Shown here: positions 10,935 through 45,700 of the stretch, one piece after another
Layout: the number at the start of each line of letters is the position of its first letter
Position numbering within the stretch: position 1 is the stretch's first letter
Source: Herbiconiux ginsengi
GTDB taxonomy: Bacteria; Actinomycetota; Actinomycetes; Actinomycetales; Microbacteriaceae
Direction: 5' to 3'
Assembly: GCF_900107435.1 (NCBI RefSeq)
Contig: NZ_FNPZ01000001.1
Coordinates: forward strand, 344,960-408,959
DNA length: 64,000 nucleotides
The notes under the pieces: model-generated
Databases searched by the model: none
Seen by the model: only the letters and a program-made list of their open reading frames with translations
Told to the model about the DNA's origin: nothing
Made by a program: the position numbers and the translations under genes

Positions 10935-11060
10935 CTGCCTCGGGGGCCGTGCTGCGCGCGGCCTCCGAGGGCGGCGCCGGTCCTTGCCCGGCGCCGCGCG
11001 ACATGTGAGCGTGAGGTCGCTTCGCGGCCTCGCGCTCACCCTGGGTCGTCGATAAAGGCC
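10935..11060 (+). repeat. 3'-end two-hairpin repeat, copy A
   Basis: Begins about 40 nt after the araC stop. Hairpin 1 is GGCGCCGG/CCGGCGCC (10973-10995). A linker with CGACATG follows, then hairpin 2, GAGCGTGAGGTCGC paired with GCGGCCTCGCGCTC (11007-11037), 14 bp with two T-G wobbles and a 3-nt loop. The tail is CACCCTGGGTCGTC. The same arrangement follows ppa and, on the other strand, the M23 peptidase and the GAF regulator. A short direct duplication of CTGCCTCGGGGGCCGTGCTG lies just before it. Confidence 0.8.
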
Positions 11061-11240
11061 TGTTGCGTTCGGCTGGGGGGTACGGGTGTTGCGTTCGCCT
11101 GTTGCGTTCGGGCTGGGGGGGTGCTGATGTTGCGTTCGCCTGTTGCGTTCGGGCTGTGGGGTGCGGCCGTTGCGTTCGGTGGGGGGTGCGGCCGTTGCGG
11201 GCGGGAGTTGCCTGCGGGTGTTGCGTCGGTCTCGTTGATC
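11061..11240. repeat. Degenerate tandem repeat with TGTTGCG core and G-runs
   Basis: About nine copies of TTGCG/TGTTGCGTTCG spaced irregularly (13-28 nt) with intervening G5-G7 runs; the clearest higher-order unit is about 41 nt and is present twice. It fills the convergent gap between araC and the MFS gene. The array starts exactly where the tail of repeat copy A (GGCCTGTTGCG) ends. G-runs on the plus strand could form quadruplexes. No coding sequence is credible here. Confidence 0.7.
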
Positions 11241-11268
11241 GGGTGGCTCGGAAGCCGGAACGACACGG

Positions 11269-12522
11269 CTAGCGGCGCGTGCGCAGGGACGCCAGGAGGA
11301 GGCCGCCGGCTGCAGCGGCCAGGCCGCCTGCGACCAGGGTGGCCTGTACGCTCACGGCGTCGACGAGAACGCCGCCCACGACCGCGCCGGTCGCGATCGC
11401 GACCTGGAATGCCGCCGCCTGCAGTCCGCCGACGCTCTCCAGGCGGGTCGGCTCGGCGCGCGCCATCCAGGTCATCAACGACGTCGGCACGCCACCGAAG
11501 CCCAATCCCCAGAGCGCGGTGGCGGCGAGCACCAGGGCAGGCACCCCGTTCGAGAACGCGAACAGCAGCAAGGCCGCTCCGAGGAGCACCGGGAACACCA
11601 GCACGGCGGCGCGGGCCCGCTTGTCGACCAGCGGCCCGGCGAGCAGGTTCCCGGCGAAGGCCGCCAGCCCGTAGACGAGCAGCAACAACGCGAGGTGCGC
11701 GGCATCGAATCCGCCCACCTCGGTCGCGGCGGGGCGGATGTAGGTGAAGGCCGCGAAGTGACCGCCGGCCACGAGCGCCGTCGCGAGCAAGGCGACCAGG
11801 ATGAGGCGTGAACGCACCGTGGCGAACAACGATCGCAGGCCCGGGACGCCGCTCGGGCGGATGCCCGGCAGCACGGTCCACTGGAACACGAGCGCAACGA
11901 TTCCGACACCCGCGGCGAGCAGGAACACCGATCGCCAGCCCCAGATCTCGCCGAGCCACGTTCCGAGCGGGATGGCGGCCACGGTCGCGAGCGACACTCC
12001 GATCTGCACCACCGTCATCGCGCGGCCGAGCCGCGACGGCGGAACCAGATGCGCGGTGACCGAGATCGCCAGTGCCCAGAATGCACCGAGCGCCACGCCG
12101 AGCAGCACCCGCGCCAACAGCAGCACGGGGTAGTTCGGAGCCAGCGCGACCAGCAGGTCGGACAGCACCGCGAGCACGCCCAGGGCGAGCAGCAGGCGGC
12201 GGCGGTCGAGGCGCGGCAGCAGCGCGGGAACCGTGAGCCCGGCGACGGCCGCGACGATGGCGGTGACGCTGACCGATTGGCCGGCGACCCCTTCGCTGAC
12301 GCCGAGGTTGCCGGCGACGCGGGTCAAAAGACTCGCGGGCAGGAATTCGGCCATCACGAGCGCGAACACGCCGAGTGCGAGAGAGACGACGGCGGTCCAG
12401 GATGCGCGGGCCGGGCCGACCAGCCCGGTCGGGCCGGTCGATTCGGCGGCGGACGAGGGAGGGGAGGCGATGGCATCGGTCGCGCGGATCGCGGCCGTCG
12501 ATGAGGTGTCGGTGCTGGTCAT
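11269..12522 (-). CDS. MFS transporter, drug/metabolite exporter (DHA1-like)
   Basis: 417 residues from the ATG at 12522, with about 12 hydrophobic helices. Family features: PALLPRLDRRRLLLALG loop between TM2 and TM3, RVLLGVALGAFWALAIS in TM4, and GLGFGGVPTSLMTWMARAEP in the second half. It resembles proton-driven NepI/AraJ-type efflux permeases. Substrate unknown. The first about 45 residues are low-complexity Ser/Thr/Ala. An upstream in-frame ATG at 12594 would add 24 residues without a better ribosome site. Repeats lie on both sides. Confidence 0.9.
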   Translation of the reverse strand: MTSTDTSSTAAIRATDAIASPPSSAAESTGPTGLVGPARASWTAVVSLALGVFALVMAEFLPASLLTRVAGNLGVSEGVAGQSVSVTAIVAAVAGLTVPALLPRLDRRRLLLALGVLAVLSDLLVALAPNYPVLLLARVLLGVALGAFWALAISVTAHLVPPSRLGRAMTVVQIGVSLATVAAIPLGTWLGEIWGWRSVFLLAAGVGIVALVFQWTVLPGIRPSGVPGLRSLFATVRSRLILVALLATALVAGGHFAAFTYIRPAATEVGGFDAAHLALLLLVYGLAAFAGNLLAGPLVDKRARAAVLVFPVLLGAALLLFAFSNGVPALVLAATALWGLGFGGVPTSLMTWMARAEPTRLESVGGLQAAAFQVAIATGAVVGGVLVDAVSVQATLVAGGLAAAAGGLLLASLRTRR

Positions 12523-12601
12523 GAGGAATGCAACGTCGAAGCGCTCTCCGTCAGCACGCCGTTCGTCGCCGTAACCGTGCAGATCGTCCGGCATCGCCGC
12601 G

Positions 12602-12770
12602 GGCCCCTCCCAGACGACTCAAGGTGAGGCCGAGGCCGCGCAGCGACCTCAGCCGAACACACCGCCCCGCGCCGCACCGCAACAGGCCCCTCCCAGACGA
12701 CCCAAGGTGAGGCCGAGGCCGCGCAGCGACCTCAGCCGAACATGCCGCCCGGCGCCGCAACAGCGGCGGC
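12602..12770 (-). repeat. 3'-end two-hairpin repeat, tandem copies B and C
   Basis: Two direct copies with an 83-nt period, starting at 12602 and 12685. They lie downstream of the GAF regulator (minus strand). Read from that gene's stop, copy C has hairpin 1 with GGCGCCGC-type arms, the CATG linker, hairpin 2 (GGCTGAGGTCGC with GCGGCCTCGGCC) and the tail CACCTTGGGTCGTC. Copy B is a near duplicate with a decayed hairpin 1. A third GC-rich stretch at 12771-12811 separates them from the stop codon. Confidence 0.75.
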
Positions 12771-44851: not shown

Positions 44852-44933
44852 CCAGTAACGTTATTGCAGTTTCGCGGCGGCGTTCTCGCGCCGCCTTGCC
44901 AACCGACACCGCCAGACACGAGGGAGCACCACC

Positions 44934-45428
44934 ATGGCCGAGTACGACGTCGTCGTCGAGATTCCCAAGGGAAGCCGCAATAAGTACGAAGTCGACCACG
45001 AGACCGGTCGCGTCTACCTCGACCGCGTGCTCTTCACGAGCTTCGTCTACCCCACCGACTACGGGTTCTTCGAGAACACCCTCGGCCTCGACGGCGACCC
45101 CGTCGACGCGCTCGTGCTGCTCGAGTACCCCGTGTTCCCGGGTGTGGGTGTGAAGGTGCGCCCCGTCGGCGTGCTCAACATGAGCGACGAGGCCGGCTCC
45201 GATGCCAAGGTCGTCGTGGTTCCCCACAAAGACCCGCGCTGGGCGCACATCCAGGACATCTCGGATGTTCCGGAGCAGACCCGCAAGGAGATCGAGCACT
45301 TCTTCGCCCGTTACAAAGACCTCGAGCCCGGCAAGTGGGTCAAGATCGACGGCTGGGGCGACGCCGCCGAGGCCGAGGCCATCGTCGAGGCCGGCTTCAA
45401 GAAGCTGGCCGAAGAGGGCTCTCACTAG
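44934..45428 (+). CDS. ppa: Inorganic pyrophosphatase
   Basis: 164 residues, family I hexameric type. [40 protein letters not shown] and [14 protein letters not shown] [15 protein letters not shown] contain the Mg-binding aspartates. Hydrolyses PPi in the cytosol. ATG at 44934 after GGGAG. Divergent from tilS by 82 nt. The gene is followed at once by repeat copy D. Confidence 0.97.
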
Positions 45429-45554
45429 CTGCCTCGGGCGCCGTGCTTCGCGCGGCGTCCTCGGGCGTCGCCGGTCCCTGCCCGGCGCCGAGCGACATGC
45501 TCGCGTGCGGTCGCAAGGCGGCCGCGCGCTCACCCTGGGTCATCGAAAAAGGCC
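45429..45554 (+). repeat. 3'-end two-hairpin repeat, copy D
   Basis: Starts at the ppa stop. Alignable over about 120 nt with copy A (GCTGCCTCGGG...GCCGTGCT...). Hairpin 1 arms GTCGCCGG/CCGGCGCC; linker GCGACATG; hairpin 2 GCGTGCGGTCGC with GCGGCCGCGCGC (45503-45529, loop AAG); tail CACCCTGGGTCATCG. Relative to A, stem position 8 changes from A-T to C-G on both sides. Confidence 0.8.
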
Positions 45555-45629
45555 CGCAGCTTTCATTGCACGTCCCGAGACTATTGGGACGCGATTAGAA
45601 GGCTTCGGGCCTTTTTCGACGACCCAGGG
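45533..45629. terminator. 97-nt symmetric palindrome, likely bidirectional terminator
   Basis: Arms 45533-45576 and 45586-45629 are exactly symmetric about a 9-nt loop GAGACTATT; the outer 24 nt pair with one mismatch and the inner 20 at 13 positions. AAAAAGGCCCG/CGGGCCTTTTT gives a GC stem with T-runs on both strands, suitable to end ppa (plus) and the M23 operon (minus). Confidence 0.75.
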
Positions 45630-45700
45630 TGAGGCCGAGGCCGCGATAGCGACCTCAGCCGAACATGTCGCCTCGCGCCGCAGAAGCGGCGGCGCGAGCA
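45608..45700 (-). repeat. 3'-end two-hairpin repeat, copy E
   Basis: Downstream of the M23 gene ending at 45791. Hairpin 1 CTCGCGCCGC/GCGGCGCGAG (45672-45698); CATG linker; hairpin 2 GGCTGAGGTCGC with GCGGCCTCGGCC (45633-45660); tail CACCCTGGGTCGTCG. Faces copy D head-on, producing the palindrome at 45533-45629. The stretch 45701-45790 between this and the stop holds a further GCCC/GGGC hairpin region and no gene. Confidence 0.8.

What the first reader, a model, noticed from the sequence alone, without database searches (positions are those of the whole stretch)
10935..45700. Dispersed two-hairpin repeat at gene 3' ends with compensatory base changes
Five copies (10935-11060; 12602-12684; 12685-12770; 45429-45554; 45608-45700) follow the stop codons of araC, a GAF regulator, ppa and an M23 gene, always in the same orientation relative to the upstream gene. 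Hairpin 2 keeps its pairing while its sequence changes on both sides: stem position 8 is A-T in copies A/C/E and C-G in D; positions 4 and 5 are C-G, G-C in A/D and G-C, C-G in C/E. Two T-G wobbles are conserved on the same side. Linker CATG and the tail CACCCTGGGTCGTC are fixed. Such double compensatory change suggests selection on RNA structure, as in a 3'-UTR element or terminator-like RNA, rather than a decayed transposon.
Basis: partly seen in the sequence, partly recalled or inferred. Interest (0 to 1): 0.78.

Follow-up and report, generated by a model that had tools for sequence, protein, structure and literature searches.

The report
REPIN-like mobile hairpins at gene ends
The five copies belong to a large family of mobile, hairpin-forming DNA repeats that sit close behind the stop codons of genes in the bacterial genus Herbiconiux; they keep their folded shape while their letters change, and none of the enzymes I tested that move such repeats goes with them.

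Summary
The repeat and its compensatory changes are real. The window's genome holds about 70 copies (71 by covariance model). Sister species hold 0 to 90; in 299 sampled family genomes it shows in this one genus only. In 86 aligned copies, 96.3% of the cells of 21 stem pairs are paired, 8 pairs change on both sides, and one T-G wobble is invariant (86 of 86). Complete arms have three hairpins, not two, in two classes that share the last hairpin and tail. Arms lie at gene 3' ends: 78 in convergent, 40 in tandem and 4 in divergent spacers. Class A arms begin within 10 bases of a stop codon in 21 of 39 cases (4.3 expected). The upstream stop is TAG in 68 of 102 genes, against 44 of 124. Close pairs are 19 tail-to-tail, 4 head-to-tail, none head-to-head, with preferred spacings. 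This is REPIN-like behaviour, so "RNA element rather than transposon" is a false choice; I read it as a mobile repeat whose hairpins probably also end or protect transcripts. RAYT-type transposase, reverse transcriptase, IS110 and TnpB do not track with copy number. The moving enzyme is unknown. Verdict: a new orphan REPIN-like family, a variant of a known kind.

The parts
10893..10937 (+). copy A: partly duplicated 5' foot of a class A arm, beginning right after the TAG stop (10890-10892) of the AraC-type gene
   Evidence: (printed stretch from stop to arm)
10938..10970 (+). copy A, hairpin H0 (class A type)
   Evidence: fold; coordinates checked
10971..10997 (+). copy A, hairpin H1
11005..11039 (+). 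copy A, hairpin H2 with the two T-G wobbles
   Evidence: covariation of the family
11037..11050 (+). copy A, conserved tail CACCCTGGGTCGTC (its first three bases lie in the H2 stem of this copy)
12696..12811 (-). copy C: complete arm (H0, H1, CATG, H2, tail with one C to T change), starting directly at the TAG stop (12812-12814, minus strand) of the GAF-domain gene
   Evidence: three-hairpin fold, z -5.6,
12613..12660 (-). copy B: degenerate second unit, only H2 and a tail with two changes recognisable (limits approximate)
45429..45466 (+). copy D: class A arm starting directly after the TAG stop of ppa (45426-45428), foot and hairpin H0
45467..45496 (+). copy D, hairpin H1
45503..45529 (+). 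copy D, hairpin H2
45531..45544 (+). copy D, tail CACCCTGGGTCATC
45545..45617 (.). palindromic spacer between the facing tails of D and E, with GAAAAAGGCCCG at one end and CGGGCCTTTTTC at the other: looks like a terminator for both directions (not tested)
   Evidence: lies within inverted repeat I1
45618..45631 (-). copy E, tail CACCCTGGGTCGTC
45633..45660 (-). copy E, hairpin H2
45668..45701 (-). copy E, hairpin H1
45705..45735 (-). copy E, hairpin H0 of class C: 14 pairs followed by TTATTGC, terminator-like on the sense strand of the M23 gene
   Evidence: 2 terminator-like sites in 1.2 kb, 0.7 expected from shuffles

Best explanation
The copies are arms of a genus-specific, miniature mobile element that works like a REPIN. 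An intact unit is two arms facing tail to tail around a palindromic spacer; single arms are remnants or half units. Each arm is a chain of hairpins (H0-H1-H2) read 5' to 3' away from the neighbouring gene. It most likely moves as a folded single strand: an enzyme supplied in trans recognises the irregular H2 hairpin (fixed T-G wobble) plus the linear CACCCTGGGTC tail, and the outer end is placed next to a stop codon, preferably TAG. That gives the 3'-end position and spares promoters. Once in place the hairpins, above all the class C H0 with its T-rich trail and the palindromic spacer, probably end or protect transcripts of the flanking genes, which would explain why they are tolerated between convergent genes. 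Shown here: copy number, structure, covariation, position, TAG excess, pair geometry, absence at many orthologous sites. Inferred: intact unit and remnants, single-strand movement, the recognised features, terminator function. Unknown: the enzyme.
For: Copies: 71 in the own genome and 90, 30, 1, 0, 7, 37, 43, 25, 23, 22, 17, 1, 46, 39, 16 in 15 sister species. Paralogues up to 93.9% identical over 163 columns. No arm recognised at 11 of 26 orthologous regions of G001 (two of these hold degenerate arm remains) and at 14 of 14 of G004. Structure: 96.3% of 1796 cells paired, 181 cells changed on both sides against 68 in shuffles, covariation 0.237 against 0.070 in shuffles and at most 0.048 for slid pairings. 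The wobble at columns 53/64 is T-G in 86 of 86. Pairs: 19 tail-to-tail, 0 head-to-head, 4 head-to-tail; 12 of 14 tail-to-tail pairs in G001 share one homologous spacer and lie 176-189 apart, 3 of 5 own pairs lie 79-82 apart. Position: 78, 40 and 4 arms in convergent, tandem and divergent spacers. Class A arms start within 10 bases of the stop in 21 of 39, 4.3 expected; class C 18 of 65, 8.4 expected. Stop codon TAG in 68 of 102 distinct upstream genes against 44 of 124 genes with a 3' gap of 60 or more and no sense arm; Fisher p 4.6e-6.
Against: No transposase was found, so movement by an enzyme is inferred from distribution alone. No clean target duplication or exact insertion point could be read, because intergenic DNA diverges too much even in the nearest species. 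In element-free orthologues the stop is sometimes TAG and sometimes TAA or TGA, so part of the TAG excess may come with the element. TAG is nearly as common where arms do not abut the stop (34 of 56, against 34 of 46 abutting). Gene ends come from my own crude gene caller, arm classes from a simple motif test that misfiles a few arms, and 40 pattern hits without a recognised H1 were dropped. Copies are related, so tests that treat them as independent overstate significance. No expression data were available.
Confidence: 0.65

Rival explanations
1. A 3'-UTR RNA element or terminator family kept by selection on RNA alone, multiplied by homologous recombination and gene conversion between copies, without any transposition machinery.
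For: Strong covariation, position at 3' ends, a terminator-like class C H0 with on average 3.3 T in the 7 bases before H1 (67 copies), no tested transposase tracking with copy number.
Against: Copies occur at spacers whose orthologues lack them, and conversion needs a copy already present. Copy number runs from 0 to 90 within one genus. Pairs have a preferred geometry and in G001 a shared spacer. An invariant T-G wobble is not what selection for stem stability alone would keep.
Confidence: 0.2
2. Remains of an extinct RAYT/REPIN system: the transposase was lost from the genus and the copies are now only inherited and reshuffled.
For: Y1_Tnp is found in 1 of 16 genomes, the one with no copies. 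CGTC-REPs are a published precedent of REPs without a dedicated transposase (PMC3733652, abstract and passages).
Against: Copies are still up to 94% identical at unrelated loci, and species differ in copy number and subfamilies, e.g. the C-A mismatch type in 14 of 86, all in rows from other genomes, which suggests spread after speciation. No GTAG tag and no REP of usual size.
Confidence: 0.2
3. A MITE moved by a DDE transposase that duplicates CTAG or TA.
For: Outer ends often carry TAG, preceded by C in some copies.
Against: The base before an abutting TAG is C in only 16 of 34. No target duplication seen in empty-site comparison. The two arms of a pair can be of different classes, unlike matched terminal inverted repeats.
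Confidence: 0.08

Closest known systems
REPINs (REP doublets) with RAYT transposases, e.g. Pseudomonas fluorescens (PMC3116915, passages read)
   Same: High-copy extragenic inverted pairs with preferred spacing, able to fold, compensatory changes, singlets seen as remnants of pairs.
   Different: Arms here are about 130-170 bases with three hairpins instead of one short palindrome; a Y1 transposase in only 1 of 16 genomes, the one without copies; most arms here are single.
GTAG and CGTC tagged REP superfamilies (PMC3733652: abstract, section 15 and passages read)
   Same: Mostly between convergent and tandem genes, close to 3' ends; [quoted passage not shown] CGTC REPs have no known dedicated transposase.
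   Different: No GTAG tag here (any base may precede TAG); CGTC is not at the foot of the stem. The word Actinobacteria does not occur in that paper, but it does mention untagged REP-like families in M. tuberculosis and D. radiodurans, among others.
E. coli REP and TnpA_REP (PMC8266576, passages read)
   Same: A strand-specific hairpin with a conserved irregularity in the stem.
   Different: There an AA-GC bulge needed for activity in vitro; here a T-G wobble whose role is untested.
Rfam families
   Same: Structured, RNA-like element.
   Different: No family reaches its gathering score in the window apart from three tRNAs; the best match to the D-E region, Thr_leader, has 30.2 bits against 55 needed.

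Membership tests
REPIN / REP with RAYT | many copies, almost all extragenic | tested here: met
   62 of 65 curated own copies lie between called genes; of the other 3, 2 look like chance tail matches inside genes and 1 overlaps a gene call
REPIN / REP with RAYT | inverted doublets with preferred spacing | tested here: met
   19 tail-to-tail, 0 head-to-head, 4 head-to-tail among 128 classified arms; spacing 176-189 in 12 of 14 G001 pairs, 79-82 in 3 of 5 own pairs; most arms are nevertheless single
REPIN / REP with RAYT | short single palindrome of 20-40 bases per REP | tested here: not met
   three hairpins per arm, about 130-170 bases
REPIN / REP with RAYT | GTAG (or GGAG) tetranucleotide at the 5' foot | tested here: not met
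   TAG in 34 of 46 abutting copies, preceded by C 16, G 11, T 5, A 2 of 34
REPIN / REP with RAYT | Y1 (RAYT/IS200-type) transposase in the genome | tested here: not met
   PF01797 in 1 of 16 genomes, the one without copies; the search rang in 5 of 14 control genomes
CGTC-REP | CGTC unpaired tag next to an 8-9 pair stem that begins with A-T pairs, CCA tail | tested here: not met
   CGTC lies at the end of the tail, about 11 bases beyond the H2 stem, whose outer pairs are mostly G-C
Rfam RNA family | covariance model score at or above gathering | tested here: not met
intrinsic terminator | G+C-rich hairpin followed by a T run on the sense strand | tested here: inconclusive
   flagged for the class C H0 of copy E, weak T run on average (3.3 T of 7, 67 copies), no T run after the H0 of A and D; termination itself not testable here
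bacterial retroelement / IS110 / TnpB-associated element | partner enzyme in the genomes that carry many copies | tested here: not met
   RVT_1 in 3 of 16, Transposase_20 in 1 of 16, TnpB domain in 0 of 16, none matching copy number
IS91-type (Y2) element | Y2 transposase in the genome | tested here: inconclusive
   0 of 16, but no control genome rang either

The most novel reading that the evidence does not exclude
Herbiconiux carries an active, REPIN-like population of composite hairpin elements moved by an enzyme that is neither a Y1 HUH transposase, nor a reverse transcriptase, nor an IS110 or TnpB system. It recognises an irregular T-G wobble hairpin in single-stranded DNA or RNA and docks the element against TAG stop codons, so that a mobile element doubles as the 3' end of its host genes.
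Probability: 0.3. Interest if true: 0.72.

Novelty: new variant of a known kind. Interest (0 to 1): 0.47.

Why it matters
REP/REPIN repeats have been tied to RAYT transposases; families without one are an open question raised for the CGTC-REPs (PMC3733652). This family offers sixteen sister species with 0 to 90 copies, a clean structural signature with an invariant wobble, and docking at or near stop codons, so the moving enzyme and the reason for the 3'-end position can be looked for directly. It also warns that compensatory base changes in a dispersed bacterial repeat do not by themselves separate a regulatory RNA from a mobile DNA hairpin.

Tried and rejected
Rfam search: only three tRNAs above threshold in the window; weak sub-threshold matches at D-E taken as chance. 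Known phage and plasmid records: no match to copy D. Y1, RVT_1, IS110 and TnpB partners: rejected because presence does not follow copy number. Y2 search uninformative, no control rang. A partner gene next to the arms: nine neighbouring proteins translated look like ordinary genes by my own reading, no search run on them. A CTAG-duplicating transposon: base before TAG too variable. Clean empty sites with target duplication: none readable. Stop-codon read-through from TAG into the element: thought of, not tested. Sense orientation as a rule: 25 to 15 in tandem spacers, dropped as a claim. Paper searches for Herbiconiux repeats, REP in Microbacteriaceae, intergenic repeats at convergent genes, REPIN or palindromic repeats in Actinobacteria (listings with abstract starts only): no listed title or abstract start describes this family; subscription papers and preprints are not in that library.
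Full report
WHAT WAS CHECKED. The described stem-2 swaps are real. The 14-base tail has 74 places in the own genome with up to 1 mismatch, against 2 for the reversed control; copy D used as a query gives 53 matches at E up to 10. Several details needed correction: the tail differs in B, C and D, B is only a fragment, and complete arms have a third hairpin.

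ANATOMY. I collected 82 tail sites with up to 2 mismatches in the fetched DNA of the own genome; 65 passed a test for a CGACATGTTCG-like motif at the right distance, 17 were dropped. They fall into two classes (19 class A, 38 class C, 8 other). Class A: a foot that often reads TAG-CTGCC, hairpin H0 with GTGCTTCGCGC in its top, H1, GCGACATG, H2, tail. Class C: GGGTACCGCTTCGCC, a terminator-like H0, another H1, then the same GCGACATG, H2 and tail. H2 exists also in a long form with an inner hairpin. Single-strand RNA folds of A, C, D and E have z-scores of -7.2, -5.6, -3.0 and -6.9.

STRUCTURE UNDER SELECTION. I aligned 86 copies, 51 from the own genome and 35 from other loci; 17 of the 103 copies in the list were left out because their H2 length is unusual. 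Of 1796 cells, 96.3% are paired; 8 of 21 pairs change on both sides; 181 cells changed on both sides against 68 in shuffles; slid pairings give 31 to 54% paired. Two of the five measures are less extreme against shuffles: pairs with a change on both sides (27 of 500 shuffles reach it) and further pair types (56 of 500). On a tree built without the H2 columns, four H2 pairs need at least 4, 17, 12 and 18 changes. That tree rests on few columns, and exchange of whole hairpins between copies would inflate these numbers. One T-G wobble (columns 53/64) is T-G in 86 of 86, the other (48/69) in 73 of 86. In 14 of 86, all rows from other genomes, one pair is a C-A mismatch. A fixed wobble in an otherwise freely swapping stem suggests recognition of an irregular hairpin, as shown for the E. 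coli REP bulge (PMC8266576, passages). This is inference.

DISTRIBUTION. A covariance model from these copies finds 71, 90, 30, 1, 0, 7, 37, 43, 25, 23, 22, 17, 1, 46, 39 and 16 matches in the 16 genomes of the genus, G000 to G015 (at most 150 candidates scored per genome). In 299 sampled genomes of the family it matched 6, all in the same genus, of 85 genera (stricter filters, 13 candidates scored per genome, so weak or few copies elsewhere could be missed). A strict pattern scan of one genome per species for 84,980 species gave 32 stretches: Herbiconiux species, Microbacteriaceae bacterium 3FA27C10 and Corynebacterium-like bacterium B27. That the window is from Herbiconiux is inferred from these. 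No phage or plasmid record matched copy D.

MOBILITY. Different copies in one genome are up to 94% identical over 163 columns; medians are 74% (A) and 78% (C). Of 26 G001 regions orthologous to arm-bearing own spacers, 11 had no arm recognised by the pattern; two of these (L209, L216) hold visible degenerate remains. All 14 G004 regions had none. The ppa-M23 spacer differs between own genome and the 14 relatives compared. So copies arise and vanish at given sites; which of the two happened is not settled for single sites.

POSITION. With my own gene caller, 62 intergenic own copies lie in 39 convergent, 22 tandem and 1 divergent spacers. For G000 plus 40 loci of G001 the numbers are 78, 40 and 4; these loci were fetched because they hold copies, and 40 further pattern hits without a recognised H1 were left out. 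Class A arms start within 10 bases of the stop of the upstream gene in 21 of 39 cases (4.3 expected for uniform placement), class C in 18 of 65 (8.4 expected). The stop is TAG in 72 of 107 arms, or in 68 of 102 distinct genes after dropping three arms flagged inside genes, against 44 of 124 for genes with a 3' gap of at least 60 and no sense arm (p 4.6e-6). Against this: element-free orthologues have TAG only in part of the cases, others TAA or TGA, so insertion may itself create TAG. TAG is also common where the arm does not abut (34 of 56, against 34 of 46 abutting). The base before TAG is free, so it is not a CTAG or GTAG tag. Sense orientation is 25 to 15 in tandem spacers (p 0.15) and uninformative in convergent ones.

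PAIRS. Neighbouring classified arms less than 420 bases apart are 19 tail-to-tail, 4 head-to-tail and none head-to-head, among 128 arms. In G001, 12 of 14 tail-to-tail pairs share a homologous spacer and lie 176 to 189 bases apart; the other two do not. In the own genome 3 of 5 lie 79 to 82 apart, among them D-E of this window. The two ends of a pair may be of either class. This is the REPIN layout (PMC3116915, passages), with longer arms; but most arms here stand alone, so that single arms are remnants of pairs is inference.

PARTNER ENZYME. Y1 transposase: 1 of 16 genomes, G004, which has no copies. Reverse transcriptase: G003, G004 and G008, with 1, 0 and 25 copies. IS110 domain: G005 only, with 7 copies. 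TnpB domain: none. Y2: none, but the control did not ring, so this says nothing. Other transposase and recombinase families were not tested. The enzyme, if there is one, is of another kind or too diverged for these models.

COMPARISON. REPs are known to sit near 3' ends, mainly in convergent and tandem spacers, and the ends of GTAG REPs often supply the TAG stop (PMC3733652, section 15). CGTC REPs lack a dedicated transposase, and untagged REP-like families are mentioned for M. tuberculosis and others (same paper, abstract and passages). So position, stop-codon contact, pairing and covariation all have REP precedents, and an actinobacterial REP-like family is not without precedent. What differs here are the long three-hairpin arms, the absence of either tag and of a Y1 enzyme, and the invariant wobble. 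I call it a new variant of a known kind: it works like a REPIN but fails three defining tests of the RAYT-linked family.

FUNCTION. The 7 bases between the class C H0 and H1 hold 3.3 T on average (67 copies), and the scan flags the H0 of copy E (2 sites found, 0.7 expected). The D-E spacer is a bidirectional terminator-like palindrome by eye. The H0 of A and D has no T run. Termination or transcript protection is plausible but untested; no expression data were available.

Noticed in passing
L107:7001-7188, L219:90-325, and the spacers printed: A second hairpin repeat, AACGACGGAG...CTCCGTCGTT, sits at gene ends without the main element and also inside the shared spacer of the paired units in G001.
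   Followed up: no
window 11060-11230: Short tandem repeats around GTTGCGTTCG follow copy A (two 41-base copies 93% alike at 11075 and 11116); they resemble repeated tail ends of the element.
   Followed up: no
own genome C3, block 742306 (L028/L054): Several tandem units of about 74 bases, most ending in a tail-like CACTCTGGGTCGTY, follow one copy: local amplification of the tail region.
   Followed up: no
own genome C2:190533 block (L024), compared with L206: One of the rare divergent-spacer copies lies beside a GAGTGC inverted repeat upstream of what looks like groES (names recalled, not tested); the sister species has another sequence there.
   Followed up: partly
own genome C3:939389 block (L014), spacer printed: The spacer of a tail-to-tail pair is itself repeated about four times in tandem, so the palindromic spacer can amplify on its own.
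   Followed up: no
several class C copies, e.g. own C11:118609, L265, L280: Some class C arms have an extra module like CTCCGCCTGGGGCG between the stop codon and GGTACC, perhaps the true outer end of a longer form.
   Followed up: no
window 45842-46153 and 47136-47444: Two neighbouring alike stretches (71-84%), the first inside the M23 gene, suggest a tandem gene duplication.
   Followed up: no
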